Positions 2,557 through 28,579 of a stretch of 51,270 bases of DNA are shown here, in pieces. Below the pieces are notes generated by a model, which did no database searches, had not been told where the DNA came from, and saw nothing but the letters and a program-made list of their open reading frames with translations. This stretch comes from an uncultured Clostridia bacterium (GTDB lineage Bacteria > Bacillota > Clostridia > Oscillospirales > Oscillospiraceae), in assembly GCA_946411475.1 (NCBI GenBank), contig CAMKED010000003.1, forward strand, positions 1 to 51,270. Reading direction: 5' to 3'. Position 1 is the stretch's first letter; every line of letters starts with the position of its first letter. The position numbers were made by a program, and so were the translations under genes.

Positions 2557-2583
2557 TTTCTCTCTCCTTTCTCTTCTCTAAGA

Positions 2584-2612: not shown

Positions 2613-2649
2613 GTTGACGAATAAACCAAAGCAGAAAGGGTGTGAAGCC

Positions 2650-3771: not shown

Positions 3772-5075
3772 TTCTGGCGAACGGAAAACGCTTCGACAGT
3801 TCCATGCAGGACAGCATTCTGGAGGGACTGGAGGCACGGCTGAATGAGACGCTGGCAAAGCCCGCCCCGAAACCGGAAACCGTGATTGCCGCCATTGACG
3901 CGCTGGGCCGTCGGGCCGCAGAGGGCGCTTTTGACGAACAGATCGCAGCGCTGCAGATCGACGGTGCAGAACAGTACAAAGAGCTCGCAGCCCGCTTGCT
4001 GCGGCGGGACTATCTGGAATTCAAGGTCCGCACGGAGCTTGGTCAGGACTTTTGCGCAGACAGCGTAACGGAGCCGCCCGCCGGTCTGGTAAAGCTGCGC
4101 GTCCTCACGCGGCCGCTCGGCGTCCTGCTGCACATCGCGGCCGGGAATGCGGACGGACTCCCGGCCTTCTCGGTGGCAGAGGGCCTGGTCACCGGAAATA
4201 TCAACCTGCTGAAGCTCCCGCAGGCGGACAACGGCCTGTCCTTGGCCATCATCGAAGCGCTGCTGGAGATCGAGCCAAGCCTCTCCGATTATATCTATGT
4301 GTTTGATACTCCGTCGACCGACCTTGCCGCAATCAAAGAGATGGCGAATCTCAGCGACGGGGTCGTGGTCTGGGGCGGAGAAACCGCCGTTGCGGCAGTA
4401 CGGCGCTTTGCACATCCCGGAACAAAATTGATCGAATGGGGACACCGGCTCAGCTTTGCTTATCTTTCGGGCAATATCGCCGAAGAGGAGCTGGAAGCGC
4501 TGGCAGAGCATATCGTTACCACGCGGCAGCTGCTCTGCTCCTCCTGTCAGGTTATTTATCTGGACACCGCCGACATGGGGCAGATTCGCAGCTTCTGTGA
4601 TTTGTTTTATCCCATGCTGGAGGCGGCAGCGCTGCGGCATCAGCCCCAAACCATCGGCGCCGTCGCGGCACTTACGCTCCGAAGCCGCACGGATCGCCTG
4701 GAAGCGCTGCTGGATCCGAAGACCGCAAGGCCGTGGTCGTCTCCGTTGTGCTCTCTGATCCCGAAGGAGGATTCGGTGCTGGAACTCTCGCCGATGTTTG
4801 GGAACGTGTTTGTAAAGCCCCTGGCGCGGGAACAGCTTTTGCCCGTGCTGCGCCAGAAGAAGCAATACCTTCAAACAGCAGGGCTTGGCTGCAATCCGGA
4901 GGACAGGGAAGCGCTCACGCAGCTGCTTGTCCGTGCCGGCGTCACCCGGGTCACTTTCCCCGGCTCCATGTCCGCCTCCCTTCCCGGAGAAGCCCACGAC
5001 GGAGAGTATCCGCTGCGAAGATACCTGAGCACGGTCAATGTGGAACTGAAAGACTCGTGGGATTCAGAGTTCTGA
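3768..5075 (+). CDS. LuxC-family acyl-CoA reductase
   Basis: 435 aa; PLGVLLHIAAGNADGLPAFSVAEGLVTGNINLLKLP, VVWGGETAV, CSSCQVIYLDT; start overlaps luxE-like stop (GTGA). Confidence 0.85.
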   Translation: MILANGKRFDSSMQDSILEGLEARLNETLAKPAPKPETVIAAIDALGRRAAEGAFDEQIAALQIDGAEQYKELAARLLRRDYLEFKVRTELGQDFCADSVTEPPAGLVKLRVLTRPLGVLLHIAAGNADGLPAFSVAEGLVTGNINLLKLPQADNGLSLAIIEALLEIEPSLSDYIYVFDTPSTDLAAIKEMANLSDGVVVWGGETAVAAVRRFAHPGTKLIEWGHRLSFAYLSGNIAEEELEALAEHIVTTRQLLCSSCQVIYLDTADMGQIRSFCDLFYPMLEAAALRHQPQTIGAVAALTLRSRTDRLEALLDPKTARPWSSPLCSLIPKEDSVLELSPMFGNVFVKPLAREQLLPVLRQKKQYLQTAGLGCNPEDREALTQLLVRAGVTRVTFPGSMSASLPGEAHDGEYPLRRYLSTVNVELKDSWDSEF

Positions 5076-6104: not shown

Positions 6105-7082
6105 ATGAACTGCCCAAACTGCGGCGTGCTACTTCCGGATGGCTCCCGCTTTTGCACACGTTGCGGAACGCGGATGACAGCGACTGCACAAACAGCCCAA
6201 TATTGTCCGGCCTGTGGAGCGACGGCCAAACCCGGTGCGGGCTTTTGCACTGCCTGCGGACAGCCCTTTGACAAAAGCAGGCTCTCCGCCCGGACGAAGA
6301 TGCAGCAGAGCGTCTCTTCCTCGGTGGAGGCGAAACCGATGACCCCGCCTTCTGCGGAGCGCACGCCGCCGCCTCTGACGGAGCAGGAACAGGCAGCCCC
6401 GGAGATGGCCGGGGAGTTTTCCTGCGCGGAACGCGAAGCACAGGAGGAAGCGGGACGGAGTCCCAACTATCTTCAGCGGCTGCTGAATATTCTGAAGCAG
6501 CCCCGGACCCTGATCCCACTTGCGGCCCTTCTGGCCTCCTGGATCGGTTTGAGCTTTGCCCGGGATACGCAGAATATTGCGGTGAAGCTGCTGTCCTGGC
6601 TGAGCTTTGCTCGGGGCGGCCTGGGCCGCGGATTCCCCGGCAATCTGGGCGGATTGCTCGGCAAGACTGCCGTTGGGACCGCACTTCTGGGACTCTGCTC
6701 CGGTTCACTGGGCTCCCTGCGGGTCGGCATTCGTTCCTTCTTTGGGCAAATAAGGAACATCTTTTCCGGCAGAGGCGGCGCGGCGGGTATCGTCGGTGCT
6801 GTTCTTGGCCTGCTGCTGGGAGCGGGCGTCTATATGATTTTTGCCGGCATCAAGACCGCCGATTGGGAGAGCAGTATGTCCGGTGCGGCCGGGGCGCTTC
6901 TCTCCCTTGGCGCCCTCGGAAGAAGCGCGATCTCCCAAACTCCGGGCAGAGCCGCAGCGCCGGCGGCCGGCGGCGGGAAGGGCGTCGGATCGGCGCAGAA
7001 AGGCACGGGCTTTTTGCCGGCCCTGCTGGCAGGGCTTGCGGCGGGCTGTCCGCTGTGCGCCTTGGTGCTGAGCGTCGTATAA
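6105..7082 (+). CDS. Double zinc-ribbon membrane protein
   Basis: CPNCGVLLPDGSRFCTRCG and CPACGATAKPGAGFCTACG followed by hydrophobic segments. Confidence 0.75.
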   Translation: MNCPNCGVLLPDGSRFCTRCGTRMTATAQTAQYCPACGATAKPGAGFCTACGQPFDKSRLSARTKMQQSVSSSVEAKPMTPPSAERTPPPLTEQEQAAPEMAGEFSCAEREAQEEAGRSPNYLQRLLNILKQPRTLIPLAALLASWIGLSFARDTQNIAVKLLSWLSFARGGLGRGFPGNLGGLLGKTAVGTALLGLCSGSLGSLRVGIRSFFGQIRNIFSGRGGAAGIVGAVLGLLLGAGVYMIFAGIKTADWESSMSGAAGALLSLGALGRSAISQTPGRAAAPAAGGGKGVGSAQKGTGFLPALLAGLAAGCPLCALVLSVV

Positions 7083-7095
7083 GGAGGGCGGAACG

Positions 7096-10000
7096 ATGAA
7101 ACAAAATCTGAAGCGGCTTTCTGCCCTGCTCCTTTGCACGGTGCTTCTGCTGTTCCTGACGCCGTCGCTCCTGCCTCCCGCCCTGGCAGAGGACGGAGAC
7201 GATGACGACATCCCCTTCGGCGGCGTTGGCATTGTGTTGCCCACCGAAGCCACAGCGGAGGTCTACAAGGATGAGGCCCCCCGCAGCGGTGTCAACTACT
7301 ATGACTTTGGGGACGGCGACTTTATGAAGTCCATCTATCTGGAATACTCCGTCATGGGTGGAAGGAACTTCACAAAGCGCTTCGTGAACACAGGCCCAGC
7401 CACCCTGGTGGCCTCTCCCGGCGAAACGATCACCATCACCTTTACCACGGAGCCGGACTGGCCCTTTGCGATCCCCTGGGCAAAAGAGAATGAGAATTCC
7501 CCGGATTTTACGGACCTCTATACCTTTGAGAACTACGTGGAAACCTATGCCTATTATATCAGCAATACTCTGAAGCCGGAGTACGTGGACAGAGAGGTCT
7601 ATTGGGACTCCGCCTCGGCTTATGAAGAGGCCTATCTGAGCCCCAAGCAGCAGACGGTTTTTTCCGGAAAAAGCTACAGCGGCTCCATCTCCATTCAGAT
7701 CCCGCCGGACATCGACGAGCGAATCTTTATTCCCAACAACGACACGCCCCCCTCGATCCGTATGTGGGTCCAGGGCGTATGCCATCTCAAGCCCTTCGGC
7801 GAGGACGTCGATCGCCTGGAGGGACGCAGCGGTGTGGGCCTTGGCCTGACGATCTATCTGGACTTTGAATACAAGGAGCCGGTTTCCGGCCTGGTTCAGG
7901 AAGAGGCCGTCCCGGCGGAGACAGGCCCCGGCGAGGATAAGGGCACCGTTATCAACCAGGATATCGTGGAGGGCGGCGAGAACAAGACCACCATTCCCGA
8001 GGCCCTGTTGGTCAGCATCGGCGGCATCGGCGGCTCCGCTGCCGCGGCGGCCCTGTTTGGCGGCGACGACAAGAACGGCAAAAAGAAAAAGCGCTCCACC
8101 TATAAAATGCACATCAACAAGAACTTCAGCAACGTCATCAAAAAAGGCGGGTCTCCCTGCTGGGTCTACGCCCGCATCATTGAGACGGCTCCGGACGGCA
8201 GGGAGCGGGAGCGACCGGACCTGACAAAGCTCATTGTGCCATTCTCCGGCGACGGGAATCTCACGGTGGAGAGCGGGGGCATGACCTCCAACGGATATAT
8301 GGCTGCTCGCGTTACGGCCCCCAAGGGAACCACGGGCTCCACGGGTCGGGTCAGCTTCCAGTTCCAGGGTAAGGGCGGTTATTTCACCGAGCATGTGATC
8401 TTCTCCCTTACCGAGGCGAAGATCAATTTCGGCCAGGAGAATCTCGGCCTTCCCGCTCACTATGACAAGAAGGTCTATCTCTTCTTCACGGTTTCCAACA
8501 TGCCGGAAAACATGCAGGTCACAGCGGAATTCCCAAAGGAGAGCAAGGCGCCCTACAAGGTCCAGCTCCTGCAGGATCCCAAGGAACCGCGCTGCTTCTG
8601 CGCGGTGCTGGAGGACGTCTCGCCCAAGGACGAGGCGGAGCCCGGCACGACCCGGACCTACCGGCTCAAGGTTCGGGCGCAGGCCCGCGTCACCGGCCCA
8701 GACGGAAAGACAGAGTTGGAGGAGGTTGAGCGGGATTTTGACGTTCTGCGGATCTTCATGGGTCTGGTGCTGCAGCTTGAAGGCGACGCCATCGGCTGCT
8801 ACCTGAAGATTAAGGACGGAAGGCAGGAGATGGCATCCAAGCGAGCCGCAGGTTCCAATCTGGGCCTGGATCTCACTTCGGGAGCGGCGGCGATCAATCC
8901 CATGAACACGATGATCAACGCCGGCATGGACGCGATGATCGGCGCATCGGTCGCCAACGATATCCGTGACGAGGACAAAGAGCCCTGCTACACCCAGGGC
9001 ACACTGCTACTGCTGAACTGGAACGATGAGACGCAGCAGATCGAGCGGATCGCGGTGCTGCCGCAGCCGAAGGTGGAGGTCAAGGCCCTGCGGGTGGACA
9101 ACGACAAAAACTCGATGATCGGCGCTGCCGAGGAACGGCACCAGGAGCTTGTCAAGAAGCTGGACATTCAGATCTTCTGCCGCGAGGTGGATCAAGAGAC
9201 CGGCGGCCGAAAGGTCTGGCTGCTGGCCACCAAGGCGGGTCTGGACCGGCCCACCCGCCTGCGGGCGGAGCTGACGGTCCGCGCGGTCTACAACAAGCAG
9301 AGCTACGAGGTCAAAAAGAAGGTGCTGCTCCACAGCATGCCCTTCCGGGCCTATGTCAACGAGACCGCACGGCAGCAGCAGCTCGGCTATGACGAGCGGG
9401 TCAGGAAGTTCCTGGAGAAGATGTGCGACGAGATCTGGGATCACTATATGAACCGGCTTTCCTCGCTGTACTATCTGGCAAGACGGATGATGGACGGCTA
9501 CGACAAAAACTTCGGCTACGATCAGAAGCAACTGGACCGGGTCTGCGACTACTGGATCAAATTCCGCCGGGGCCAGGTGGAAGGCAAGAACGGCGAGACC
9601 TATAAGGTCAGTATCCAGGACGACCTGGCCGCCTGCGTTGCCTTCGTGGAGGGCATGCGGGACAACGGCGGCATCATCGGCCGCATTGCCCTGGGCGTCT
9701 GCACAGCGGGTTACTCGGAGGTCCTGTTCTTTGGCATGGATCTCCACGACAAAATGAAGGAGGCAGTCTTTGCCTGCAAGGAGAATGACTTCGGATTCTG
9801 GGACGGCGTGGCGCTCGGTGTAAAGGAGTACGAGAAGCAGGTGGCCATGGAGCTGCTGGTGGGCGGCGCATTGAAACTGGGCAACTACGGCGTCGGCAAG
9901 CTCACCGGCGTAGACCTTGGCGCCACTATCACAAAGAATTGGCGCGGCGCCATGGATGCGGCGGACAAGGCCCTGCGCGGCAGCAGCAAGCTCTACAAGT

Positions 10001-11298
10001 TCGGAGCCAGGACCCTGGACGGGATCCAGGCCTTTACCAACGGCGGGGCCGCGGCCTACAAGGAGGCCATGGAGCGCGCCGCCCGGGAGGATCTTGCCGC
10101 CGAGGCCAAGGCTACCACCATCGCCCAGCGGCGCATGGGCGACCTGGGACTGAGCCCGGAGCAGATGCGGTCTTTGGAGATCCACGACCTTTCCATGAAG
10201 CGGGGCATGGATAACCTCAACGAGCTCTGGGCCCGCCAGAGAGAACTGGCCGTGGCCAGAAAGGCAGGAAACCTGGCGGAAGCCAAGGCGGCCTACGAGG
10301 AGGCGTGGCTCAAGGCAAAGTACGACAAGAACACCTTTAAGCAACTGAAAAACTATACCGGACCCGAGGGCCAGACGATTCGCGCAAAGTTCACGGAGGT
10401 TCGAAAAGCCCACGACGCCCGCATTATGGAACGTATTTTGGATGACGTCAGCGCAGAGACCGGCATCCCCCGGAATGAGCTTTACATCGAAACCGTCAGC
10501 GGTCACGCGGATGCCTGGAAGGAAACAGCAGGTCTGACGCTCTCGGAGGACGTGGATATGAACGTCCGGCAGATCGTCTACTCTGGACGGGACGGCCTGG
10601 TCACGGCTCCCAACGCCAACTATTCTGCCGGCACGCAGGATATCATCGTAGCCCAGAAGATCGGCGAGAACGCTATGGCCCGAAACGTCTACAAGGAATT
10701 CCACGGAGGCATGGATGCGCCGAGCATCGAGGTCGCCAAAGAGTTTACAGCCCAGATGGACTACACCTATGTCCAGCCCTGGCAGGGTCTGGAGGGCGAT
10801 CTGGAGATCACCTTCAACCAAGAGGCCTATATCGAGCTGGATAAGGTGATCAATCCGTCCCACTTCGGCGAGTCGCTGGACGCCAAGCGGATGAATCAGC
10901 TCACCGTGGAGCACAAGGCCATGGAATGGAAGCAGCGGGCGGAGAAGCTGCAGGCCCGGGCGGACGGCCTGGAACAGGAAGCCGCCTCGCTCACCGGAGA
11001 GGCGAAGCTTGCCAAGCTGGAAGAGGCCACGGATCTGCGCTGCACGGCCCACGGCCAGGAGGTCGAGTCTATCCGCCAGCTCACCAAGGCCGGCGACAAC
11101 ACCATCGGCCCGCGCAGCGAGTACCGCGACGGTCAGGGCTTGGGCGCCAGCTATACCACCGAGGCCAAGGACATCGTGGCTCTGGGCAAGGAGGTCCAGA
11201 AGGGCATGGATCCCCACGCCTACTTCGACCAGCTACAGATCGATCACGGCGTCGACTACAGAGGCGCCGTGCGGGAGGTTGCTGCTTGTCTGGAGTGA
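7096..11298 (+). CDS. Large secreted/membrane-anchored protein of unknown function
   Basis: 1400 aa, N-terminal signal peptide (LKRLSALLLCTVLLLFLTPSLLPPALAED), hydrophobic segment ~aa 303-322, Ig-like beta-rich middle, helical C-terminal region; RBS AAGGAGGGCGG. Confidence 0.85.
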   Translation: MKQNLKRLSALLLCTVLLLFLTPSLLPPALAEDGDDDDIPFGGVGIVLPTEATAEVYKDEAPRSGVNYYDFGDGDFMKSIYLEYSVMGGRNFTKRFVNTGPATLVASPGETITITFTTEPDWPFAIPWAKENENSPDFTDLYTFENYVETYAYYISNTLKPEYVDREVYWDSASAYEEAYLSPKQQTVFSGKSYSGSISIQIPPDIDERIFIPNNDTPPSIRMWVQGVCHLKPFGEDVDRLEGRSGVGLGLTIYLDFEYKEPVSGLVQEEAVPAETGPGEDKGTVINQDIVEGGENKTTIPEALLVSIGGIGGSAAAAALFGGDDKNGKKKKRSTYKMHINKNFSNVIKKGGSPCWVYARIIETAPDGRERERPDLTKLIVPFSGDGNLTVESGGMTSNGYMAARVTAPKGTTGSTGRVSFQFQGKGGYFTEHVIFSLTEAKINFGQENLGLPAHYDKKVYLFFTVSNMPENMQVTAEFPKESKAPYKVQLLQDPKEPRCFCAVLEDVSPKDEAEPGTTRTYRLKVRAQARVTGPDGKTELEEVERDFDVLRIFMGLVLQLEGDAIGCYLKIKDGRQEMASKRAAGSNLGLDLTSGAAAINPMNTMINAGMDAMIGASVANDIRDEDKEPCYTQGTLLLLNWNDETQQIERIAVLPQPKVEVKALRVDNDKNSMIGAAEERHQELVKKLDIQIFCREVDQETGGRKVWLLATKAGLDRPTRLRAELTVRAVYNKQSYEVKKKVLLHSMPFRAYVNETARQQQLGYDERVRKFLEKMCDEIWDHYMNRLSSLYYLARRMMDGYDKNFGYDQKQLDRVCDYWIKFRRGQVEGKNGETYKVSIQDDLAACVAFVEGMRDNGGIIGRIALGVCTAGYSEVLFFGMDLHDKMKEAVFACKENDFGFWDGVALGVKEYEKQVAMELLVGGALKLGNYGVGKLTGVDLGATITKNWRGAMDAADKALRGSSKLYKFGARTLDGIQAFTNGGAAAYKEAMERAAREDLAAEAKATTIAQRRMGDLGLSPEQMRSLEIHDLSMKRGMDNLNELWARQRELAVARKAGNLAEAKAAYEEAWLKAKYDKNTFKQLKNYTGPEGQTIRAKFTEVRKAHDARIMERILDDVSAETGIPRNELYIETVSGHADAWKETAGLTLSEDVDMNVRQIVYSGRDGLVTAPNANYSAGTQDIIVAQKIGENAMARNVYKEFHGGMDAPSIEVAKEFTAQMDYTYVQPWQGLEGDLEITFNQEAYIELDKVINPSHFGESLDAKRMNQLTVEHKAMEWKQRAEKLQARADGLEQEAASLTGEAKLAKLEEATDLRCTAHGQEVESIRQLTKAGDNTIGPRSEYRDGQGLGASYTTEAKDIVALGKEVQKGMDPHAYFDQLQIDHGVDYRGAVREVAACLE

Positions 11299-16938: not shown

Positions 16939-17007
16939 CATGCTTTTCCAACGGGATGATGTCCCTGTTTTGTGTGGCATACAGGGCCGCGCCAAAAAAG
17001 AAAACGT

Positions 17008-17156
17008 GTTAGTTGCAATTTGAGGACCTCAAAGACACAATTACACGGTGCGCTGTACGTACCGGGCAATAGTGACTAGTGACTAGTGACTAGTCACTGG
17101 TGCTTTCTTCGGCGTAGATGTATTTCCACGAAATAAGTCCTCACTTTGCGACTAAC
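17008..17156. repeat. ~149-bp structure bounded by 20-bp imperfect terminal inverted repeats, with internal GTGACTA heptamer repeats
   Basis: GTTAGTTGCAATTTGAGGAC ... GTCCTCACTTTGCGACTAAC (17/20 complementary). Confidence 0.6.
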
Positions 17157-17211
17157 GCCAAAGAAAAAGCTATACTTATAATAGTGTATATCTATGTAAC
17201 ATAAATAATAC

Positions 17212-17240
17212 TTGACAAATATGATATGTTATGATAAACT
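17212..17240 (+). promoter_or_regulatory. Sigma-A-type promoter of the RiPP cluster
   Basis: TTGACA-N17-TAAACT. Confidence 0.6.
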
Positions 17241-17325: not shown

Positions 17326-18675
17326 ATGATGGACTACAAGCTTTCAAGGTATAATTTTACCTTTCCCTATCCCAAGCACGGCGAGGAGCAGGAACAGACG
17401 GTCCTTTATAACACGCGGACCGGCTCGATTGCCCTGATCGAGGCGGACAAATATGAACAGTACAAGCAGTTTGAAGAGCGCGGAATTCCCATGGCGGATG
17501 AGGAACTTTTGGGGAATCTCAAGCTGGGCGGCTACGCAGTGGACAGCGATTTTGATGAGCTGGCCGCGATCAAGTACAATCTTTATGCCACCCGGTTTGC
17601 TACCAATGCGCTTGCGCTTACGATCGCGCCTACGTCCAACTGCAATTTCCGCTGCATCTACTGCTATGAAAAAGACAGCATCAAGCCGATCACCATGTCT
17701 GAACAGACGCAGGAGGACCTGATTGCTTTCGTAAAGCAGTATCTGCCGGTCATCAAGCACTTTCACGTGACCTGGTATGGCGGCGAACCCTTGATGGCCA
17801 TGGACATCATCGAGAAACTGAGCGCTGCGTTCCTGAAAATGTGCGCAGAGCACAGTATCAAGTATACCGCTTCCATGGTGACCAACGGTTATTTGCTCAC
17901 GCGTGCGAATGCAGAAAAGCTTCGCAAGCTGCAAATCGACAGCATCCAGGTTACGCTGGATGGCGCTGCGGAGGATCACGACAAGCGGCGCTTCCTGAAA
18001 GGCGGGCTGCCTACCTTTGACCGGATTATTGAGAATCTCTGCGCGTCGAAGGATATTCTTCCGCAAAGAGTTTCCATTCGCATCAATGCGGACCGGCATA
18101 ATATCGACCGGGTGGATAACGTGGTCAGGATTCTGCGGGAAAAGGGCCTGGGGGACAAGGTTCAGCCCTACTTGGCGATGGTTGAAAACAGCAACGACGC
18201 CTACAATGACAATTCCTGCATGCACACCAATGAGTTTTCCAAGTGTGAATTTGATTTCATCATGCGCAACGGGCTGAACATTGTGGGGCGCACCCCGAGC
18301 CAGACCGGTAATTTCTGCGGCGCTGACCGGCGCGGGAGCTTTGTCGTGAACGCTGACGGCCGTCTCTACCGGTGCTGGGATGATTTGGGTGTTGAAGCCT
18401 GCAGCGTCGGCACCCTCAAAGACGGTGCGAAGGACTGCCCCCAGATGTTTGCCTACATGCTCTACGACGCGACGGAAGATCCGGAATGTCGGGACTGCAA
18501 GTTCCTGCCCGTTTGCATGGGCGGCTGCCCGCATCAGAGACTCCAGAATCCGAAGATCCGCTGCACCGGAATGAAGTACGGTCTGAATTCTTTTATGAGC
18601 GTGATTCCGGAGCTGCTGGAACGGCAGATGAACGAAGCGAAGCAGATGGAGAATAACGGAACCGCCCTCGACTGA
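17326..18675 (+). CDS. Radical SAM/SPASM peptide maturase
   Basis: CNFRCIYCYE (CxxxCxxC), WYGGEP, TNGYLL, SPASM-type C-terminal Cys set NFCGADRRGSFVVNADGRLYRCW...CRDCKFLPVCMGGCPHQR...C. Confidence 0.92.
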   Translation: MMDYKLSRYNFTFPYPKHGEEQEQTVLYNTRTGSIALIEADKYEQYKQFEERGIPMADEELLGNLKLGGYAVDSDFDELAAIKYNLYATRFATNALALTIAPTSNCNFRCIYCYEKDSIKPITMSEQTQEDLIAFVKQYLPVIKHFHVTWYGGEPLMAMDIIEKLSAAFLKMCAEHSIKYTASMVTNGYLLTRANAEKLRKLQIDSIQVTLDGAAEDHDKRRFLKGGLPTFDRIIENLCASKDILPQRVSIRINADRHNIDRVDNVVRILREKGLGDKVQPYLAMVENSNDAYNDNSCMHTNEFSKCEFDFIMRNGLNIVGRTPSQTGNFCGADRRGSFVVNADGRLYRCWDDLGVEACSVGTLKDGAKDCPQMFAYMLYDATEDPECRDCKFLPVCMGGCPHQRLQNPKIRCTGMKYGLNSFMSVIPELLERQMNEAKQMENNGTALD

Positions 18676-18835
18676 CAGCAGAAAAAACGAAAGCAAGAGG
18701 GAACGGAAAACTCCGTCTGATATCATTTGTGAACGCCACGTCTGCAGATGGAAGGCCCAATCGGGGTTTCCTCTGCGAATGTGTGTTCAAACATAATTTG
18801 CCTGTGGCAAAAATTCGAAGAAAGGAGAAAGCGTC

Positions 18836-18949
18836 ATGAAGTTTTTGGTTCTGAATCAGCCCAAGAGCGAGACCCCCAACTGGGCTTGCCTGGCGAAGCT
18901 GGTTTGCGAGTACAAGATTAACTACTGCATTACTCTGACCGACAAGTAA
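18836..18949 (+). CDS. Predicted RiPP precursor peptide (37 aa): MKFLVLNQPKSETPNWACLAKLVCEYKINYCITLTDK
   Basis: ATG after AAAGGAG RBS, between radical SAM maturase and ABC exporter; three Cys (C18, C24, C31); below ORF-track length cutoff. Confidence 0.85.
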   Translation: MKFLVLNQPKSETPNWACLAKLVCEYKINYCITLTDK

Positions 18950-18972
18950 TCCGAAAACCTTCTAAACCCAGG

Positions 18973-19012
18973 AAGAGACGATATACGGCTACCCGGTATC
19001 GTCTCTTTTTTT
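18973..19012 (+). terminator. Terminator/attenuator between precursor and transporter genes
   Basis: AGAGACGATA...TATCGTCTCTTTTTTT. Confidence 0.85.
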
Positions 19013-19021
19013 GAATGTGCT

Positions 19022-20656
19022 ATGAATAAAATATTATCTTTTGCCGGCCCTTATATAAAACAATACCGGGGGCGTCTGGCGCTGTTAATCTTTTTGTATA
19101 TCGTGCTGGGCTTTGGGGGTATGATCATGCCCTGCGTGTTCGGCAAGTTTGTCGATGCGTTGATTACCGGCTCCGCCTCGGCGAAAATGAAGGACTATAT
19201 TGCCCTGATCGCCGCGATTGGCACGATCGAGCTTGTTCTGAACTACGTCTGCGAGCGTCTTTATATTTCCGTGCAGTGCAGAAGCGGTCACGCCCTGAAC
19301 ACGGCCGCGATTCACCGGATCCAGAATATGTCGTTCGGCTTTATGCGCGACAAAAACGCGACGTTTCTGAACCGGCAGATCAACAACGACGCCAATGCAG
19401 TCGTGATTTTCAGCATTACGGTCCTGGAGAACCTGATTACGAATGTCTGCACGTTGTTGATCCCGCTGGCGCTGCTTAGCTGCCTGGAGCCTTGGCTCGG
19501 TCTGGCGGTGTTTGCGGTCAATTTGCTCTACTTTGCACTCTATCAGCTCCTCCGGGGCGGGGTGTACCGTGCACAGCGGGAGTTCCTGAACGAGCAGGCA
19601 GACTATTTTGCCAAGCTCGGGACACAGCTTTCCAACGTGAAATTTATCCGGACCCACGGCCTGGCAAGCGGATTTATCACGCGGCTTTCCGGAAGCCTGG
19701 AAAAACTGATTCATGCCGCATCTCGATCCCAAAAGGCGCGGTATATGTTTTCCGGCGCTGACGTAATTATCAAATACGGCGCGTCCATTCTGGTGTTTCT
19801 TCTCGGCGGCTATGCTGTCATCCGCGGGAAAATGACGCCGGGCGAGTTTACGGTCACGCAGAGCTACTTTACGATGACGCTCGGCGCGACGCAGTATTTC
19901 TTCTCTCTTGGAAAAGAGATTCAAAGCACCCGTGTCTCCTGCGACCGGCTGCAGGCCATTTTTGACGAGCCGGAGCAGACAAACGGCACGCGGAAGATTT
20001 CGGATATCGAGCGCATCGCGTGCGAGGGCGTCAGCTTCCGCTACGATGAAGCAAAGGTGCTTTCCGACCGGAACGAGACCTTTGAGAAGGGAAACATCTA
20101 CGCCTTCGTCGGAGAAAACGGAGCGGGAAAGAGCACCTTTATCAACCTCCTCATGGGCCTGTTTATCGACCGCTACGAAGGAAGCGTCCGCTATGACGGG
20201 GTCCCGATCGAGGAACTGGATATGCGCGCCGTCCGGCGGGAACTGGTCGGCGTGAGCGAACAGGAGCCCATGCTGCTGGAGGATACGCTTCGTTTCAACC
20301 TGACCTTTGACGATCAGGCGACGGTCGATGAATCGGAGTTCCGGACGCTCTGCGAGATCCTCAATTTGGACAGCTTCATCCGCCTGCTGCCTGACGGGTT
20401 GGATACGGTGGTGCGGGAAGGAAGCAGCAATCTGTCCGGCGGAGAGAAGCAAAAAATCTCCATCATTCGCGCGCTTCTGAAACACCCGAAGCTCCTGGTG
20501 CTGGATGAACCGACATCAGCGCTCGACCGTGAAAGTAGGCGCAAATTCGTTGAATACCTTGCTGAAATCCGAAAGGATAAGATTATTTTGGTTTCCACGC
20601 ACGACGAGGAACTTTTGCGCATTTGCGCAGAAACGGTTTCCCTGGTGAAACAGTAG
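19022..20656 (+). CDS. ABC transporter, fused TM and ATPase domains (putative RiPP exporter, no C39 peptidase domain)
   Basis: GENGAGKSTFINLLMG, LSGGEKQKISIIRALLKHPKLLVLDEPTSALD; six-TM N-terminal half. Confidence 0.93.
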   Translation: MNKILSFAGPYIKQYRGRLALLIFLYIVLGFGGMIMPCVFGKFVDALITGSASAKMKDYIALIAAIGTIELVLNYVCERLYISVQCRSGHALNTAAIHRIQNMSFGFMRDKNATFLNRQINNDANAVVIFSITVLENLITNVCTLLIPLALLSCLEPWLGLAVFAVNLLYFALYQLLRGGVYRAQREFLNEQADYFAKLGTQLSNVKFIRTHGLASGFITRLSGSLEKLIHAASRSQKARYMFSGADVIIKYGASILVFLLGGYAVIRGKMTPGEFTVTQSYFTMTLGATQYFFSLGKEIQSTRVSCDRLQAIFDEPEQTNGTRKISDIERIACEGVSFRYDEAKVLSDRNETFEKGNIYAFVGENGAGKSTFINLLMGLFIDRYEGSVRYDGVPIEELDMRAVRRELVGVSEQEPMLLEDTLRFNLTFDDQATVDESEFRTLCEILNLDSFIRLLPDGLDTVVREGSSNLSGGEKQKISIIRALLKHPKLLVLDEPTSALDRESRRKFVEYLAEIRKDKIILVSTHDEELLRICAETVSLVKQ

Positions 20657-20976: not shown

Positions 20977-21981
20977 TCAGGGCTTCGCGGCAGGCGTGTG
21001 TTTTGCATAAAACCGGATTGTAAACAGTGCGCCGTGCGGCGTGCGGTTGGCGGCTTTCAGGTTGCCGTCCTGTGTGGAGACGACCTTTTTGGCAAATGCA
21101 AGCCCGATGCCGAAGCCGTTTTTGGTGTATTCCGAGGAACGGTAGAAGCGCTCGAAGATATGCGGCAGCTCCTCCTCCGGAATGCCCTCGCCGGTATCGG
21201 CGATTGAGATGCTCGTTGAGACGGCGTTTCCCTTTGCGTGGACGGTGACCGTGCCGCCCTCCGGCGTGTGCTCCACGGCGTTTTTCAGTAAATTGATCAG
21301 TGCCTCGGAGGTATAGCGCAGATCGCCGACGAAGCTCGGCTCGTCCTCGAGCACCGTTCGGATCTCGACGCCCTTCAGCTCCGCGGTGACGGAGACGGTG
21401 TCCACGGACTGCTCGATCAGCTCGCGGCAGGAGACGGGCTCGCTGGCAAAGCGCACCGCCCCGGCCTCGATCCGGGAGAGGCTCAGCATCGTTTCAATCA
21501 GCCATTTCATGCGGGAGACCAGCTCGAACAGCTCGCGCAGGTATTCCCTGCGGCTTTCGCCCGGCAGGCTCGGCGCGCGCATCAGGTCAAGGATCATCAT
21601 AACGGAGGTCAGCGGGGTCCGGAGCTGATGGGAGATGTCCTCCAGCGCTTCCTTGGCGAACTGCTTCTCGTTCAGCAGCGCCGCGTTCTGCTCACGCAGG
21701 CGGATCGTCATTTTGTGGATCTCGGCGGCCAGAACGCTCAGCTCGCCCTCCTTGTATTCGTCAAAGCGAATGACGTCCTCCCCGCGCAGGATCCGATCCA
21801 CGTCGTCGCAGAGCCGTTCCGCAATGCGCTGCCGCTTCTCCAGCAGCCCCTCGTAGAGCGCGAGAAGGAGCGCGGACAGGGCAATCACCATGGCTGCGCA
21901 GGGAAGACTGAAAAACCCGCAGAATACGGCGGCGGCCACGGTCAGCAATCCGTGGAACAGGCGGCGGTTTCGTTTGCTCAT
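20977..21981 (-). CDS. Sensor histidine kinase
   Basis: DISHQLRTPLTSVMM (H box), NLLKNAVEHTPEGG, DTGEGIPEEELPHIFERF, GFGIGLAFAK; two N-terminal TM segments. Confidence 0.93.
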   Translation of the reverse strand: MSKRNRRLFHGLLTVAAAVFCGFFSLPCAAMVIALSALLLALYEGLLEKRQRIAERLCDDVDRILRGEDVIRFDEYKEGELSVLAAEIHKMTIRLREQNAALLNEKQFAKEALEDISHQLRTPLTSVMMILDLMRAPSLPGESRREYLRELFELVSRMKWLIETMLSLSRIEAGAVRFASEPVSCRELIEQSVDTVSVTAELKGVEIRTVLEDEPSFVGDLRYTSEALINLLKNAVEHTPEGGTVTVHAKGNAVSTSISIADTGEGIPEEELPHIFERFYRSSEYTKNGFGIGLAFAKKVVSTQDGNLKAANRTPHGALFTIRFYAKHTPAAKP

Positions 21982-22652
21982 CCGTCCACCGCCTTATAGC
22001 CGAGCCCGCGGACGGTCAGAATGATTGCGGGATTCTGCGCGTCGTCCTCGATCTTTTCGCGCAGCCGCCGGATATAGACGCTCAGCGTGTTGTCCGAGAC
22101 GAATTCCTTCGTCATCACCCAGAGCTCCTCGGCGATCCGGTCCCGGGAGAGCATCTGGTTTTTGTTTGAGATGAACACCAGCAGCAGGCGGTATTCGAGC
22201 GCGGACAGGGTGAGCTCCCGTCCGTTTTTGAACACGAGGCCCTTGATGGGGTCGACCGTAACGCTGCCGCATTGGAGCAGTGGCGTGAATTTTTCATGCT
22301 TCCGCATGGCGTTTTTCATGCGTGCCAGCAGCTCGCGGGTGCCGAAGGGCTTGCCGATATAGTCGTCCGCGCCCATTTCAAACCCGGCCACCGTGCAGGC
22401 CTCGTCGGCGGAGGCCGTAATGAAGATCACGGGGGTGTCGCTTGCTTTTTTGATGGCCGCGCAGACGGAATAGCCGTTTCCGTCCTTCAGGGAAATATCC
22501 AGCAGCACGCAGTCGTAGCGGCTTTCCTCAAACAGCCGCAGTCCTTCCCGCTGGCCGCTGGCGTGAGAGGTCGCGTAGCCCTCGGAGTTGAGAAAGCGGA
22601 TCAAAATACTCGCAAGCTGCTCGTCGTCCTCAATCAGCAGAATCTGGGACAT
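21978..22652 (-). CDS. OmpR-family response regulator
   Basis: LLIEDDEQLASIL, DCVLLDISLKDGNG, winged-helix C-terminus; overlaps HK gene. Confidence 0.95.
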   Translation of the reverse strand: MSQILLIEDDEQLASILIRFLNSEGYATSHASGQREGLRLFEESRYDCVLLDISLKDGNGYSVCAAIKKASDTPVIFITASADEACTVAGFEMGADDYIGKPFGTRELLARMKNAMRKHEKFTPLLQCGSVTVDPIKGLVFKNGRELTLSALEYRLLLVFISNKNQMLSRDRIAEELWVMTKEFVSDNTLSVYIRRLREKIEDDAQNPAIILTVRGLGYKAVDG

Positions 22653-22689
22653 CCTATCACCTCCTGACAGCTTTTATCTTAGCATGATT

Positions 22690-22722
22690 TTACACAAAAA
22701 GCAAGCGGCCGGTTCCCCCGAC
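22690..22722 (-). terminator. Terminator between response regulator and permease genes
   Basis: AAAAAGCAaGCGGcCGG...CCGcCTGCTTTTT. Confidence 0.65.
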
Positions 22723-22737
22723 CGCCTGCTTTTTAAT

Positions 22738-22840
22738 TGACAATTGACAAGTGACAGGTGACAATTGGAGGTATCCCTTCGGGATTATTTGAAATATTCC
22801 TTCAATTGTCAATTCTCAATTCTCACCTGTCAATTGAATC
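22738..22840. repeat. Heptameric (TTGACAA-type) repeats arranged as a long inverted repeat
   Basis: ttgacaattgacaagtgacaggtgacaattgg...ccttcaattgtcaattctcaattctcacctgtcaattg. Confidence 0.75.
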
Positions 22841-25213
22841 TCATTCCGCGTTCCGGATCCGCTCGGCGAGGCTCTGCTTGCCCTGCGAGCGGAGCATGAA
22901 AACGGAAGCCGCGCAGCCGGCCGCGAAGGCCGCGGCGGAGGCCAGCGTGATCCTGACGGCAATCACGGCGAAATCCAGCTTTGCCATATCGAGGATCTGT
23001 TGGAAGCCGCTAAACATCTCCCCATAGCGCCCTAATATGACCTTCGGGATCAAATACTGATTGAAGCCGACGACGATCAGTCCGCAGATCAACATGGAAG
23101 CCAGGAAAGCCTTCGCGACGTATTGCATGCACTCGATCAGCGTCAGCCGGAGCAACTGCCCGTCCGTCATGCCCACGCATTGCAGGGAGGCCAGCTCGCT
23201 GCGGCGGTTGGCGATGCCGGTGGAGATGATGTTCAGCAGGTTGACCAGCGCAGCCAACGCAATGATGCAGTTCAGGAACAGCACCCCGGCGCGCAGCGCG
23301 GCCATCGTGTCCTGCGTTTCCAGTCCCTCCGAATAGCTGTCGCCCCAGACCTCGAACTGATCGGAATTTGCCCGGAAGAAGGCCTCGATTTTTTGATAGG
23401 CCGCCTGGCTGTATCCGTTCTCCTCTCCGACAAAAAGGGAAATACTGACAGTATAATCATAATCGAGCTCCGATTTATCTGTGTCTTTGAGCAGCTCGTC
23501 CTGAATTTCCAGATAAGTTTCAAGGGTACCGATCAAACAACCGCCATATCCGTAATAATGATAGTCATCCGACGGCTGCTGCTCGATGATTGCATACAGC
23601 GTGAATTCGTGCGGACGCCGTTCGATCACAGGCTTTTCCTTACTGGGATCTGCTACCAGCTCCCAGGGATCATATTCCGGCTGATGGTAGGAATTCAACG
23701 TGATCGTTCCGGGTTCCCCGTCGGAAAGCAACGGCCGATATACGTCGGTACGCTTCTGAAAATATGCGGATGCTGCTTCATTTTGGGAAACAGCATCAAT
23801 ATACACGACGCCGGCGTTGCCTGCGAGCGTCTCATAGGGGATTGCCGGGTCGTCGCCGAATATCTGCCGATATTCTGCCGGATTGACAAAAATCAAGCTC
23901 TGTAAGAGCGAGCTCAGTTCATTGGGCAATGCGTCTTCCAGGGGATATTCCAGGGACTCGCTTATTTCAACGCGGGTCTCCTGAAACAGATCGCTGTTTT
24001 CCAGCAGCTCCACCACATCGCGCAGATCCGCGTTTTTCTTCGGCATGATGAAAAAATCGGAGCCGTTGTAGGAGTCTTCCCGGATTGACGCCAGCATGGT
24101 GTTCTCCACGGCGGTCGCCAGAGAGCTAAAAATTGCAAACAGCGTAATGGACACCGTCAGCGTGAGCACCGTGATGCGGAAGCGCTTCTTCTGCCGTCTG
24201 GCGTTGCGGTAGGCGATGCGGCCGGACAGGCCGAAGAACAGGCTGGACAGCGGCCCCAGAAGCGTGAGCTCCCGGGACAGCTTTCCGCCGTTGACCCGTT
24301 TTGCCCGCGCCGTGATGGCGTCCATCGGGGCCTTGCGCACCACGCGAAGTCCTACGCCGTAGGCCGAGAAGAAGGTCCAGATCACGCCGACCCCTGCGGA
24401 GACCAGAAGCATCCTCGGCTGCACGAGAAAGCGCGGCTGGAACGTGCCGCCTGTACTGCTGCGAATCAGATTGGACAGCCCTGCTGAAAGGACTGCGTGA
24501 TACATGCCGAAGGCGAGCAGCACGCCGAGCGCCACACCGAGCGGGACGGCGACGACGCAGAGCCGCAGCCCCTCCCGCGTGATGATCCGCACGATCTGCT
24601 GCGGCGTCGCGCCGATGGCCTGCAGCATGCCGTAATGCTGTTCCCGCTCCTTGGAGGAGACCTCAAAGGCGGAATCCACGACAAGCCGGATTGCGAGGGA
24701 GATAAACAGGGCAAACAGGGAGAACAGCGCGAACAGAAACAGTCTTGCGACAATGCTCTCGTTGCCGATCCCGTCCAAGAGCATCAACGTCCCGTTCCAT
24801 TCGAATAAATCCTGGGCATATTTGCCGTCCCCGTCGGGCAATGAAACTTCCCGGTATATTTCCGCACCGCATTCGTACGCCAAAAGACTCAACCAGTCTT
24901 TCGGGTTGTCCAGACCCATCCGAAATGTGACTTTGGCGGCCAGGAATCCGTCTCCCGCGGGCTCGAAGCTGACAGATTTGACGTGCTTGTCACTGCGCAG
25001 GGCGGTGGCCTTGTTTTCCGGCCATTCATAAATCAGCAGGTGATAGGGCGCTTCCTGGTAGGCGGCTGCTCTCGCATTCCCCAGAAGCACGCCGTAGAAC
25101 ACGAAGAAAACGGTCAGAACCGCAACTGCGACCGCAATGCTGAGCAGTGTAAAAATCGACTGCCGCTTCTGTGCCCTGATATACCGGGAGGCCAACAGAC
25201 TTTCATAGCGCAT
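22841..25213 (-). CDS. FtsX-like ABC transporter permease (copy B)
   Basis: 790 aa; MRYESLLASRYIRAQKRQSIFTLLSIAVAVA; C-terminus matches adjacent paralog. Confidence 0.88.
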   Translation of the reverse strand: MRYESLLASRYIRAQKRQSIFTLLSIAVAVAVLTVFFVFYGVLLGNARAAAYQEAPYHLLIYEWPENKATALRSDKHVKSVSFEPAGDGFLAAKVTFRMGLDNPKDWLSLLAYECGAEIYREVSLPDGDGKYAQDLFEWNGTLMLLDGIGNESIVARLFLFALFSLFALFISLAIRLVVDSAFEVSSKEREQHYGMLQAIGATPQQIVRIITREGLRLCVVAVPLGVALGVLLAFGMYHAVLSAGLSNLIRSSTGGTFQPRFLVQPRMLLVSAGVGVIWTFFSAYGVGLRVVRKAPMDAITARAKRVNGGKLSRELTLLGPLSSLFFGLSGRIAYRNARRQKKRFRITVLTLTVSITLFAIFSSLATAVENTMLASIREDSYNGSDFFIMPKKNADLRDVVELLENSDLFQETRVEISESLEYPLEDALPNELSSLLQSLIFVNPAEYRQIFGDDPAIPYETLAGNAGVVYIDAVSQNEAASAYFQKRTDVYRPLLSDGEPGTITLNSYHQPEYDPWELVADPSKEKPVIERRPHEFTLYAIIEQQPSDDYHYYGYGGCLIGTLETYLEIQDELLKDTDKSELDYDYTVSISLFVGEENGYSQAAYQKIEAFFRANSDQFEVWGDSYSEGLETQDTMAALRAGVLFLNCIIALAALVNLLNIISTGIANRRSELASLQCVGMTDGQLLRLTLIECMQYVAKAFLASMLICGLIVVGFNQYLIPKVILGRYGEMFSGFQQILDMAKLDFAVIAVRITLASAAAFAAGCAASVFMLRSQGKQSLAERIRNAE

Positions 25214-25263
25214 GGTTTATTCCCTCCGTAAACTGTCAATTTTCGTATCTGTTCAGTAGGGTT

Positions 25264-25368
25264 GTAGTGGCCGCGCACCTGCGCGGCCATATAGTTCTGA
25301 AAGAGCGATACGCGCCATGGCCGCGCAGGTGCGCGGCCACTACGGAGCGGGTGCGACTGAATAGACAC
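25264..25368. repeat. Dispersed palindromic repeat copies 3 and 4 in head-to-head arrangement
   Basis: gtagtggccgcgcacctgcgcggccatatag...cgcgccatggccgcgcaggtgcgcggccactacggagcgggtgcgactgaatagacac. Confidence 0.85.
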
Positions 25369-25390
25369 ATATCTTCTTTCAATTCGTTTT

Positions 25391-27715
25391 TTATTCTGCG
25401 TTTCGGATCCGCGCTGCGAGGCTCTGCTTGCCCTGCGAGCGGAGCATGAAAACGGAAGCCGCGCAGCCTGCCGCGAAGGCCGCGGCGGAGGCCAGAGCGA
25501 TTCTGACGAAAATCACGACGGAATCCAGCTTGACCAGATTCATGAGGATTTTTCCTTCTTCTGTATCCGCATAAAGGATCCAGTCCGCTCCGAAGCTGAG
25601 CTCCATGATCCCCGGAAGCAGCAGTTGCTCGAAACCGACGATGATCAGCCCACAGATCACGGCCGTAATCAGGGCTGCCTTCATGACGTATTGCAGACAT
25701 TCCGCCAGCGTCATGCGGAGCAGTTGCCCGTCTGTCATGCCCACGCATTGCAGAGAGGCCAGCTCGCTGCGGCGATTGGCAATGCCGGTGCAGACGATAT
25801 TCAGCAGGTTGATCAGCGCGGCCAGTGCGATAATGCAGTTCAAAAACAGGATACCGGCCCGAATCGCGGCCAAGGCATTCAGAATGATCATATACTCCGC
25901 GTAATTGTCCCAATCGTGCACTATGAGGTTGGAATGCGCCCGGAAGAACGACAGGATCTTTTGATAGGTTGCCTGGTCGTCTTTGCCGGTCATGTGGGCT
26001 TTCAACTGAGCGACTATATATGTGGTGCCGAACCAGTCGTCTTTGATTGCTATGTAAGTGTCCATCGTGCCGACCAAACTATGCCAGGACGCTGGTTCGG
26101 CCACCGCGCACACCGTGATCTCATGCGGACGCAGTTCGGGCTCGGACCATACATAATTGGGGTTTTGCAGTTCCTGCTCGGTCGGTTCTTTTTGGTACCG
26201 AGAGCATACGGAGACTGTTCCCGATTCTGCGTCCAAACGGAAGTCGGCCATCCAGGCCGCCTCCTCCTGCGGGATCTCATAGTCGGAAGAGCTTTGTGCG
26301 GGAATATACACGAACCCGCCGAGCTTTGTAAGTTCCGCATAGCTGATCGGCGGATTTTCTCCGAACAGGGATTGGTATTCCGCCTGATCGACGAAATGTG
26401 CTGCTATCCCGCGATATTCATACTCACCCTGAAAACTTGGGTCGTCGTGACGGTATTCCGTTTGAAAGCTCTCATAGGCATATAAATGGACCTGATCAAA
26501 CAGATCGGAGGCGTAAACCAGATCCAATGTGTCAGAGACAGTCTTGCCGGAATCCGAATCGCCCCGCAAGGAGACGTCAAAAGAGAGATATCCATCGTAT
26601 TGTTTGAAGAAAATTTGTTTCAGAAAGTTCTCCGCGTTGTCCACAATGGCAGTGAAGATCGCAAACAGCGTGATCGAGACGGTCAGCGTGAGGACTGTAA
26701 TGCGGAAGCGCTTTTTCTGCCGTCTGGCGTTGCGGTAGGCGATGCGGCCGGGCAGACCGAAGAGCAGACTGGAAAGCGAGCCAAGAAGCGAGAGCTTCCG
26801 GCTCAGCTTGCCGGAGCGCTTGGCTTTTTTTGCCGTTTGTACCCGGGCGGGCCGGGCCGTGATGGCGTCGATCGGTGTTTGTTTCACGACGCGCATTCCA
26901 ACGCCGTAGGCCGAGAAAAATGTCCAAATCACGCCGACTACGGCGGCGACGAGCAGCATCAGCGGACGAACGGAAAAGCGCAGCTCCAGCTCCGCGTATT
27001 CCACTTGGTTCAGAAGCTCGGACAGACCGCCATCCATCACCGCGCGGTACATGCCGAAGGCAAACAGGAGCCCGAGCGCAAGCCCGATCGGGACGGCGAT
27101 CACGCAGAGCCGCAGCCCCTCCCGCGTGATGATTCCCACGATCTGCTTGGGCGTTGCGCCGATGGATTGCAGGACGCCGTAGTGCCGCACCCGTTCCTTG
27201 GCCGAGACCTCAAAGGCCGTATCCACCACGAGCCGCAGCGCGAGTGCAAACAGGAGGACAAAGACGAGAAAGATCCCAAAATACAGGAATTTCTTGACGA
27301 TCGCGTCGCTGCCGATCCCGTCGTAGAACATCAGATCCCGGTTCCAGTCATACGAAATCCGGTCACTCTGGATTTTGGCGATGAGACTGTCTACCCAGGA
27401 AGACGGATCGCTGATGTCGTTTTTCAGCATGATGCTGGCCGTCAGGGAACCCGTGTCATGGCGCTCAAAGCGAACGGATTCGACGTACGCATCATTCCGC
27501 AGCACGGAAGCCTTGTTCTCCGGCCAGTCAAAGATGATCACGTGATAGGGCGCCTGATTGTACGCGTTCGTTCTCGCATTGTCCGTGAACGTGCCGTAGA
27601 GCACGAAGAGCATGGTCATGACCGCGACCGCGACCGCGATGCTGATCAGCGTAAAGATTGATTGCCGCTTCTGCGATTTGATGTACCGGGAAGCGAGCAG
27701 GCTTTCATAGCGCAT
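25391..27715 (-). CDS. FtsX-like ABC transporter permease (copy A)
   Basis: Start MRYESLLASRYIKSQKRQSIFTLISIAVAVAVMT at 27715; paralogous to 22841..25213. Confidence 0.88.
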   Translation of the reverse strand: MRYESLLASRYIKSQKRQSIFTLISIAVAVAVMTMLFVLYGTFTDNARTNAYNQAPYHVIIFDWPENKASVLRNDAYVESVRFERHDTGSLTASIMLKNDISDPSSWVDSLIAKIQSDRISYDWNRDLMFYDGIGSDAIVKKFLYFGIFLVFVLLFALALRLVVDTAFEVSAKERVRHYGVLQSIGATPKQIVGIITREGLRLCVIAVPIGLALGLLFAFGMYRAVMDGGLSELLNQVEYAELELRFSVRPLMLLVAAVVGVIWTFFSAYGVGMRVVKQTPIDAITARPARVQTAKKAKRSGKLSRKLSLLGSLSSLLFGLPGRIAYRNARRQKKRFRITVLTLTVSITLFAIFTAIVDNAENFLKQIFFKQYDGYLSFDVSLRGDSDSGKTVSDTLDLVYASDLFDQVHLYAYESFQTEYRHDDPSFQGEYEYRGIAAHFVDQAEYQSLFGENPPISYAELTKLGGFVYIPAQSSSDYEIPQEEAAWMADFRLDAESGTVSVCSRYQKEPTEQELQNPNYVWSEPELRPHEITVCAVAEPASWHSLVGTMDTYIAIKDDWFGTTYIVAQLKAHMTGKDDQATYQKILSFFRAHSNLIVHDWDNYAEYMIILNALAAIRAGILFLNCIIALAALINLLNIVCTGIANRRSELASLQCVGMTDGQLLRMTLAECLQYVMKAALITAVICGLIIVGFEQLLLPGIMELSFGADWILYADTEEGKILMNLVKLDSVVIFVRIALASAAAFAAGCAASVFMLRSQGKQSLAARIRNAE

Positions 27716-28415
27716 TGCCGTCGGCCTCCTTTGGGGCGCCCTTTGTCTCGTCGGAAATGATCTTCCCGTCGTGCAGCACGATGATCCGATCACACTGCTC
27801 GGCGAGGCTCTCGTCGTGGGTGACCATGAGGATGGTCTGCTTCAGCTCGCGGTTCGTCCGGCGGAAGAGCTCCATGATCTCGGCGCTGTTCTTGCTGTCG
27901 AGGTTGCCGGTGGGCTCGTCCGCAAGGATGATCTGCGGCGCGGTAAAGATGGCCCGGCCGATGGCGGCGCGCTGCTGCTGACCGCCCGAGAGCTGAGAGG
28001 GCAGGTGGTTTCTGCGCTCCTTGAGCTCCAGCATATCCAGGATCTTTTCCAACTGAGCCTGATCCGGCTTCCGCCCGTCCATAAGGACCGGGAGCACGAT
28101 GTTCTCCTCTGCGGTCAGCACGGGGTTCAGATTGTAGAACTGATAGATCAGCCCGACCTGCCGTCTGCGGAAGATGGCCAGCTCTTTTTTATTGTGCTTG
28201 AACACGTCCTGCCCGTCGAGCCAGACCTTGCCGGAGGTAGGCTGATCCACCGCGCCGAGCAGGTGCAGCAGGGTAGACTTGCCCGAGCCGCTCGCGCCGA
28301 TGATGGCGACCATCTGGCCCTTCGGGACGCTGAACGACACGCCGTCCACGGCGCGCACTTCGTTTTCGTCCTTGCCGTAGACCTTGCAGAGCTCTTCCAC
28401 TTTCAATAATTCCAT
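27705..28415 (-). CDS. ABC transporter ATP-binding protein (LolD/MacB/BceA-like)
   Basis: GASGSGKSTLLHLLGAVDQPTSG, LSGGQQQRAAIGRAIFTAPQIILADEPTGNLDS; likely start MELLKVEELCKVYGK. Confidence 0.95.
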   Translation of the reverse strand: MELLKVEELCKVYGKDENEVRAVDGVSFSVPKGQMVAIIGASGSGKSTLLHLLGAVDQPTSGKVWLDGQDVFKHNKKELAIFRRRQVGLIYQFYNLNPVLTAEENIVLPVLMDGRKPDQAQLEKILDMLELKERRNHLPSQLSGGQQQRAAIGRAIFTAPQIILADEPTGNLDSKNSAEIMELFRRTNRELKQTILMVTHDESLAEQCDRIIVLHDGKIISDETKGAPKEADGNAL

Positions 28416-28579
28416 TTCTGTTCTTCCTCCCAATTTTTAGTATCCGCTTTTCGCTAATTCTATCATAGCATGCTTTCCTGACAATTCCATTATCCGAATC
28501 TTACAATATTGTCACACGGCTTGCTATTTTGCCGGGGATAGATTATAATTGCCTTACAAGCAACAAGGAGGAAGACAGC

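What the first reader, a model, noticed from the sequence alone, without database searches (positions are those of the whole stretch)
18836..18949. Overlooked 37-aa precursor peptide with C-x5-C-x6-C spacing
Translation MKFLVLNQPKSETPNWACLAKLVCEYKINYCITLTDK is absent from the supplied ORF list because of the length cutoff. Cys at 18, 24 and 31 sit in a C-terminal half that also offers E25, N29, T33, T35 and D36 as possible thioether acceptors. The leader-like first ~15 residues contain no Cys. This spacing is not one I recognise from characterised sactipeptides or ranthipeptides.
Basis: partly seen in the sequence, partly recalled or inferred. Interest (0 to 1): 0.78.

Follow-up and report, generated by a model that had tools for sequence, protein, structure and literature searches.

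The report
Short precursor of a crosslinked peptide
A gut (probably rumen) bacterium carries a tiny 37-residue peptide gene between the radical enzyme that very probably crosslinks it and an exporter; the gene is real and belongs to a known style of bacterial peptide factory, but the part of the peptide that becomes the product differs completely from species to species, so the noted cysteine spacing is private to this genome.

Summary
The 37-aa ORF at 18836-18949 is real and is very probably the precursor of a radical-SAM RiPP (ribosomally made, enzyme-modified peptide). It has an AAGGAG ribosome-binding site 8 nt upstream and lies between a radical SAM/SPASM maturase (17326-18675) and an ABC exporter (19022-20656). 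Three other genomes of the genus carry the same three-gene cassette (69-75% protein identity), each with a Cys-rich small ORF in the same slot. All share the N-terminus M[KE]FL[VS]L. Against the closest, seven codons (MKFLVLN) differ at six nucleotides and no residue, which shows selection on the leader. The same leader type, M-x-[F/Y]-[L/I], opens nearly all of 23 precursors beside related maturases, including RefSeq-named Clo7bot peptides. The maturase model has an RRE-like N-terminal fold and matches the SCIFF ranthipeptide maturase CteB best. The core is hypervariable: length, Cys number and spacing (C-x5-C-x6-C here) are not shared by relatives, so the spacing defines no class and the proposed acceptors have no support from conservation. 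Neither maturase nor peptide passes a named NCBI model. Best filing: an unnamed, rumen-associated sister clade of the Clo7bot/TIGR04463 systems; thioether (ranthi-type) chemistry is likely but unproven.

The parts
17212..17240 (+). promoter-like TTGACA-17-TAAACT ahead of the maturase (consensus match only)
17326..18675 (+). radical SAM/SPASM peptide maturase, 449 aa: N-terminal RRE-like domain (about residues 10-90), CX3CX2C at C106/C110/C113, SPASM Cys C331, C350, C388, C391, C397, C401, C413
18822..18827 (+). ribosome-binding site AAGGAG, 8 nt before the ATG
   Evidence: shuffle test
18836..18949 (+). 37-aa precursor peptide MKFLVLNQPKSETPNWACLAKLVCEYKINYCITLTDK
18836..18856 (+). conserved leader MKFLVLN, inferred to be the RRE-binding strand
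18887..18946 (+). hypervariable core with Cys 18, 24, 31 (from Cys18 on); leader/core boundary not determined
18975..19005 (+). hairpin between precursor and transporter, followed by a T run in the window; conserved in position, with compensatory changes at 3 of 10 pairs across four genomes; terminator or attenuator (inferred)
19022..20656 (+). ABC exporter (membrane + ATPase domains, no C39 leader-peptidase domain), 544 aa

Best explanation
The ORF encodes the precursor of a radical-SAM RiPP made by a three-gene cassette: maturase, precursor, exporter. Shown: gene order, ribosome-binding site, conserved leader, conserved cassette in four genomes of the genus, intact catalytic and SPASM cysteines in the maturase. 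Inferred: the extreme N-terminal leader (MKFLVLN) docks as a beta strand on the RRE-like N-terminal domain of the maturase; the radical SAM centre then abstracts hydrogen from acceptor residues and links one or more of Cys18, Cys24 and Cys31 to them as thioethers (non-alpha, ranthipeptide-type, more likely than sactionine); the ABC protein exports the product, with leader removal, if any, by a protease outside the cassette. A hairpin after the precursor probably lets precursor mRNA outnumber transporter mRNA. The product is most likely a secreted competition or signalling peptide whose core diversifies quickly. Estimated probabilities: genuine radical-SAM RiPP precursor about 0.93; thioether chemistry about 0.6.
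For: Same slot holds a Cys-rich small ORF with the same N-terminus in L002, L003 and L004; maturase 69-74% and transporter 69-75% identical while the slot between (18656-18973) has no DNA match. Leader under purifying selection: 6 nucleotide differences, 0 residue changes over 7 codons against L003. Leader pattern shared by 23 precursors beside related maturases, position 4 always L or I, position 3 F or Y in 19 of 23, including RefSeq-annotated Clo7bot peptides MKFIKKP.../MKYIVKP.... Model of the maturase (pLDDT 88.5) has strand-strand-strand-helix-helix-strand-helix at residues 10-90, close to the three-strand, three-helix arrangement described for RREs (PMC8326336); best PDB matches by fold and sequence are CteB 5why/5wgg, in which the leader binds the RRE as a beta strand (PMC8326336). 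Conserved hairpin with compensatory changes.
Against: No expression or peptide data. No acceptor residue is conserved, so thioether chemistry rests on maturase kinship alone; sequence identity to CteB is only about 17-18%. Leader docking was not modelled with the peptide present. No peptidase lies in the cassette. The maturase is in only 4 of 23 genus genomes, and the 37-aa core has no homologue in the genomes searched.
Confidence: 0.75

Rival explanations
1. Precursor of a radical-SAM peptide whose modification is not a non-alpha thioether (for example alpha-carbon sactionine links, C-C or C-O links, or epimerisation); in the last cases the Cys are free, disulfide-linked or metal-binding.
For: SPASM maturases of similar fold do other chemistry (TigE, SuiB, SkfB and EpeE are among the PDB matches). 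The core has W16, Y26, Y30 and K21/K27 as other targets. Acceptors are not conserved.
Against: Every precursor found beside a related maturase carries Cys, nearly all at least three, and the closest solved maturase by sequence and fold is CteB.
Confidence: 0.3
2. A decayed precursor: the cassette once encoded a longer (~53 aa) peptide as in L002/L003, and this copy is a shortened remnant.
For: The three genus relatives have 47-54 aa and 4-6 Cys against 37 aa and 3 Cys here.
Against: No Cys-rich continuation after the stop; the stop is followed within 26 nt by the conserved hairpin, as in L003. Other intact loci have 28-43 aa precursors with 3-5 Cys (L028, L030, L033, L034). Maturase and transporter are intact.
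Confidence: 0.07
3. Chance ORF in the gap between maturase and transporter.
For: An ORF of 30+ aa alone arises in 49% of shuffled gaps.
Against: Ribosome-binding site plus leader pattern arises in 0.02%; seven leader residues are identical to L003 despite six nucleotide differences.
Confidence: 0.02

Closest known systems
Clo7bot systems (peptide TIGR04333, maturase TIGR04334; ctpM in RefSeq)
   Same: Maturase full-length homologue (303.7 bits to TIGR04334); N-terminal leader M-[KR]-[FY]-[IL]; Cys-rich variable cores; ABC transporter gene nearby.
   Different: Maturase far below the curated cut-off (303.7 of 600), 33% identical to the Paraclostridium example; peptide not matched by TIGR04333 though the Paraclostridium control peptides are; one precursor after the maturase instead of several before it.
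TIGR04463 family radical SAM/SPASM RiPP maturases and the Cys-every-fifth CefA/CefB systems
   Same: Maturase 301.3 bits to TIGR04463 and 221.7 to NF038107; CefA of Methylomagnum also begins MQYLVQP.
   Different: Below both cut-offs (525 and 600); precursor 37 aa rather than hundreds; no regular Cys spacing; no partner C-methyltransferase in the cassette.
SCIFF ranthipeptides (TIGR03973; maturase CteB/ScfB type)
   Same: Radical SAM + SPASM + RRE-like layout; CteB is the best PDB match; a Cys-to-acceptor distance of 5, as in CteA Cys32-Thr37 (PMC8326336), would be available at C24-N29 and C31-D36.
   Different: Different leader and core; the same genome has its own ordinary SCIFF elsewhere (contig C34) beside the other SPASM maturase, so this is a second, separate system.
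PapB/freyrasin ranthipeptide (NF047865)
   Same: Related maturase (131.9 bits); PapB accepts Cys-Xn-Asp with n = 0-6 (PMC9413430), so irregular spacing is no obstacle to this chemistry.
   Different: Cut-off not met (340); no CX3D motifs; different leader.

Membership tests
Radical-SAM RiPP system (general) | maturase with CX3CX2C and SPASM cysteines beside a small precursor | tested here: met
   C106/C110/C113 and SPASM Cys conserved in 17 homologues; precursor in the same slot in 4 genus genomes
Radical-SAM RiPP system (general) | RRE that binds the leader | tested here: inconclusive
   RRE-like N-terminal arrangement in a confident model and CteB as best fold match; leader binding itself not modelled
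Clo7bot | maturase passes TIGR04334 cut-off (600 bits) | tested here: not met
   303.7 bits
Clo7bot | peptide matches TIGR04333 | tested here: not met
   no match; three Paraclostridium control peptides match
Clo7bot | leader M-[KR]-[FY]-[IL] at the extreme N-terminus (pattern read from RefSeq Clo7bot peptides here) | tested here: met
   MKFLVLN against MKFIKKP/MKYIVKP
TIGR04463 maturase family | maturase passes cut-off (525 bits) | tested here: not met
   301.3 bits
Ranthipeptide | thioether from Cys to a non-alpha carbon of an acceptor | not testable with these tools
   needs mass spectrometry or NMR of the product
SCIFF | six Cys in 45 residues, TIGR03973 | tested here: not met
   three Cys in 37 residues, no NCBIfam match; the genome's SCIFF is on contig C34
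Sactipeptide | Cys to alpha-carbon thioethers | not testable with these tools
   needs product chemistry

The most novel reading that the evidence does not exclude
A horizontally exchanged RiPP cassette in Oscillospiraceae of ruminants in which one conserved maturase and exporter serve cores that are replaced or diversified wholesale, so that each species makes its own crosslinked peptide from a shared seven-residue leader. Supporting signs: two genomes share the chromosomal site with 82-91% identical flanks, yet the cassette is only 73-77% identical there, and one of them has a cassette closer to that of a third genome at a site without matching flanks.
Probability: 0.3. Interest if true: 0.6.

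Novelty: new variant of a known kind. Interest (0 to 1): 0.42.

Why it matters
The clade lies outside every named NCBI model, so its precursors are missed by routine annotation. A maturase that accepts such unlike cores behind a leader of about seven residues would be a useful test of how little leader these enzymes need, and a possible tool for crosslinking designed peptides. It also gives four natural enzyme-substrate pairs, 69-74% alike to the window's enzyme and unlike in core, with which to separate what the enzyme reads from what it tolerates.

Tried and rejected
Spacing C-x5-C-x6-C as a class mark: rejected, absent from the relatives. Alignment column 'invariant C24' in A1: judged an artefact of aligning unlike cores. 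Acceptor prediction from residues around Cys across 23 precursors: C-x3-C and some N, S/T and aromatic offsets stand out, probably driven by repeats inside the longer peptides, and none gives a prediction for the window peptide. Search for the core itself in 401 family genomes: only chance-level matches. Other small ORFs in the gap (GTG at 18729, ATG at 18748): no convincing ribosome-binding site, rejected. Empty-site comparison: the matching flanks in G002 and G003 both break at window 21007 and the upstream flank is on another contig, so no empty site could be read. Viral contigs gave only distant maturases. Literature: no held paper mentions Clo7bot, TIGR04334 or TIGR04463. Loci L029, L031 and L032 were first read on the wrong strand and corrected.

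Full report
What is there. The ORF 18836-18949 reads MKFLVLNQPKSETPNWACLAKLVCEYKINYCITLTDK, as reported. It has an AAGGAG ribosome-binding site 8 nt before the ATG. It sits between a 449-aa radical SAM/SPASM protein (17326-18675) and a 544-aa ABC exporter (19022-20656), all on the + strand. Its stop is followed within 26 nt by a hairpin and a T run.

Is it more than chance? An ORF of this size alone is not surprising: 49% of dinucleotide shuffles of the gap contain one of at least 30 aa. With a ribosome-binding site the figure is 2.6%, with three or more Cys as well 0.36%, and with a ribosome-binding site and the leader pattern of the relatives 0.02% (the pattern was drawn up from a set that includes this peptide, so the last figure is somewhat generous). 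The strongest evidence is comparative. Against the genus relative L003, the first seven codons differ at six nucleotides and no amino acid (0 of 100,000 simulations).

Relatives. The maturase was found in 4 of 23 genomes of the genus, in one further genome of 401 sampled from the family, in no other of 396 sampled from the order, and in five others of 399 sampled from the phylum. The three genus relatives are the same loci as L002 (water-buffalo rumen), L003 and L004 (goat omasum), all Oscillospiraceae MAGs. The window's own source is not named, so 'rumen' for it is an inference. In each, the slot after the maturase holds a small ORF with a ribosome-binding site: L002 MKFLSLGIIVPGERPDYKVALCKLEECIIVRDGCSQYGCSTNGPSCFCSGGFTN, L003 MKFLVLNGSNPKPGDSANSYVCNDEIGYCPTNRPGCTCWYANTWTCFLSKNSH, L004 MEFLSLGILNPGDRPNVMVNCPIADVGGGGGWGYCGCYAFSGCYWAK. 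The transporter follows in all (69-75% identity). DNA similarity runs through the maturase, stops near its end, and resumes at or just after the hairpin before the transporter; the window's precursor slot does not align.

Wider family. Precursors beside more distant maturases (Clostridium, Terrisporobacter, Paenibacillus, Alkaliphilus, Butyrivibrio and unnamed Bacillota) start the same way, and so do RefSeq-annotated Clo7bot peptides on a Paraclostridium plasmid and CefA of Methylomagnum. Over 23 such peptides, position 3 is F or Y in 19, position 4 is always L or I, and the first Cys falls at positions 15-24 (18 here). Lengths run from 26 to 76 aa and Cys counts from 1 to 10. Precursors of 28-43 aa with 3-5 Cys occur at other loci too, so 37 aa is not a sign of decay.

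Maturase. It has CX3CX2C at C106/C110/C113 and the seven SPASM cysteines, conserved across 17 homologues, C413 nearly so. Its best NCBI models are Clo7bot (303.7 bits, cut-off 600) and TIGR04463 (301.3 bits, cut-off 525); it passes neither. The genus relatives behave alike. An AlphaFold2 model from 17 sequences (pLDDT 88.5, pTM 0.85) shows three strands and three helices in residues 10-90 in the order described for RREs (fold description PMC8326336). The nearest solved structures are CteB, the SCIFF maturase. In CteB the leader binds the RRE as a beta strand (PMC8326336). The run M-K-F-L-V-L could form such a strand, but peptide binding was not modelled.

Mechanism. The best-supported account is: translation of the precursor from an operon with the maturase; docking of the N-terminal leader on the RRE; radical crosslinking of core Cys; export by the ABC protein. 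The operon and leader follow from sequence; docking, chemistry and export are inferred from family knowledge. The transporter has no C39 peptidase domain and no protease lies in the conserved cassette, so leader removal is open. Thioether formation is favoured by kinship to CteB and PapB. PapB tolerates Cys-Xn-Asp with n = 0-6 (PMC9413430), so irregular spacing is compatible with this chemistry. C24-N29 and C31-D36 give the Cys-to-acceptor distance of five reported for CteA (PMC8326336), but nothing conserved supports them.

Regulation. The hairpin 18975-19005 lies before the transporter in all four genomes, with all 40 cells paired and compensatory changes at 3 of 10 pairs (four sequences only). 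It looks like a terminator or attenuator that favours precursor over transporter transcripts (inference).

Evolution. L002 and L003 share a chromosomal site (flanks 82-91% DNA identity), yet their maturase and transporter genes are only 73-77% identical. L002's cassette is closer to that of L004 (79-81%), whose flanks do not match. The cassette therefore looks exchanged or fast-evolving, and the core is its most variable part. Whether cores are swapped in blocks or drift quickly is not resolved.

Verdict. The system is an unnamed sister clade of Clo7bot/TIGR04463 systems. The same genome has a separate, ordinary SCIFF locus.

Noticed in passing
window 17005-17163: A dispersed repeat of about 160 bp with inverted ends (GTTAGTTGCAA ... 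TTTGCGACTAAC), at least 8 copies in this genome at 76-100% identity, with a variable internal GTGACTA(G) tandem; MITE-like, directly upstream of the cassette promoter.
   Followed up: partly
window 20977-28433 (-): Two-component system (histidine kinase, response regulator) with two FtsX-type permeases and an ATPase, arranged like Bce-type peptide-resistance modules. The kinase/regulator pair is also in genomes G002 and G003, which lack the maturase, so it is not part of the cassette.
   Followed up: partly
L030, L033, L034 (genome G1077, contig C1 about 547-555 kb): Three related maturases within 8 kb, each with a short precursor-like ORF of the same leader type nearby (31, 43 and 28 aa).
   Followed up: no
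window 2461-5075: Adjacent LuxE-like acyl-protein synthetase and LuxC-like acyl-CoA reductase genes.
   Followed up: no
window 7096-11298: A 1400-aa ORF with no Pfam match, next to a zinc-ribbon protein (6105-7082).
   Followed up: no
L079, about 44 nt after the maturase stop at 4323 (Bacillus cereus plasmid): A 26-aa ORF MEYIVKPITLNPKDNSDRLECGIKFN with a ribosome-binding site and a single Cys after a related maturase, not in the record's gene table; possible minimal precursor.
   Followed up: no
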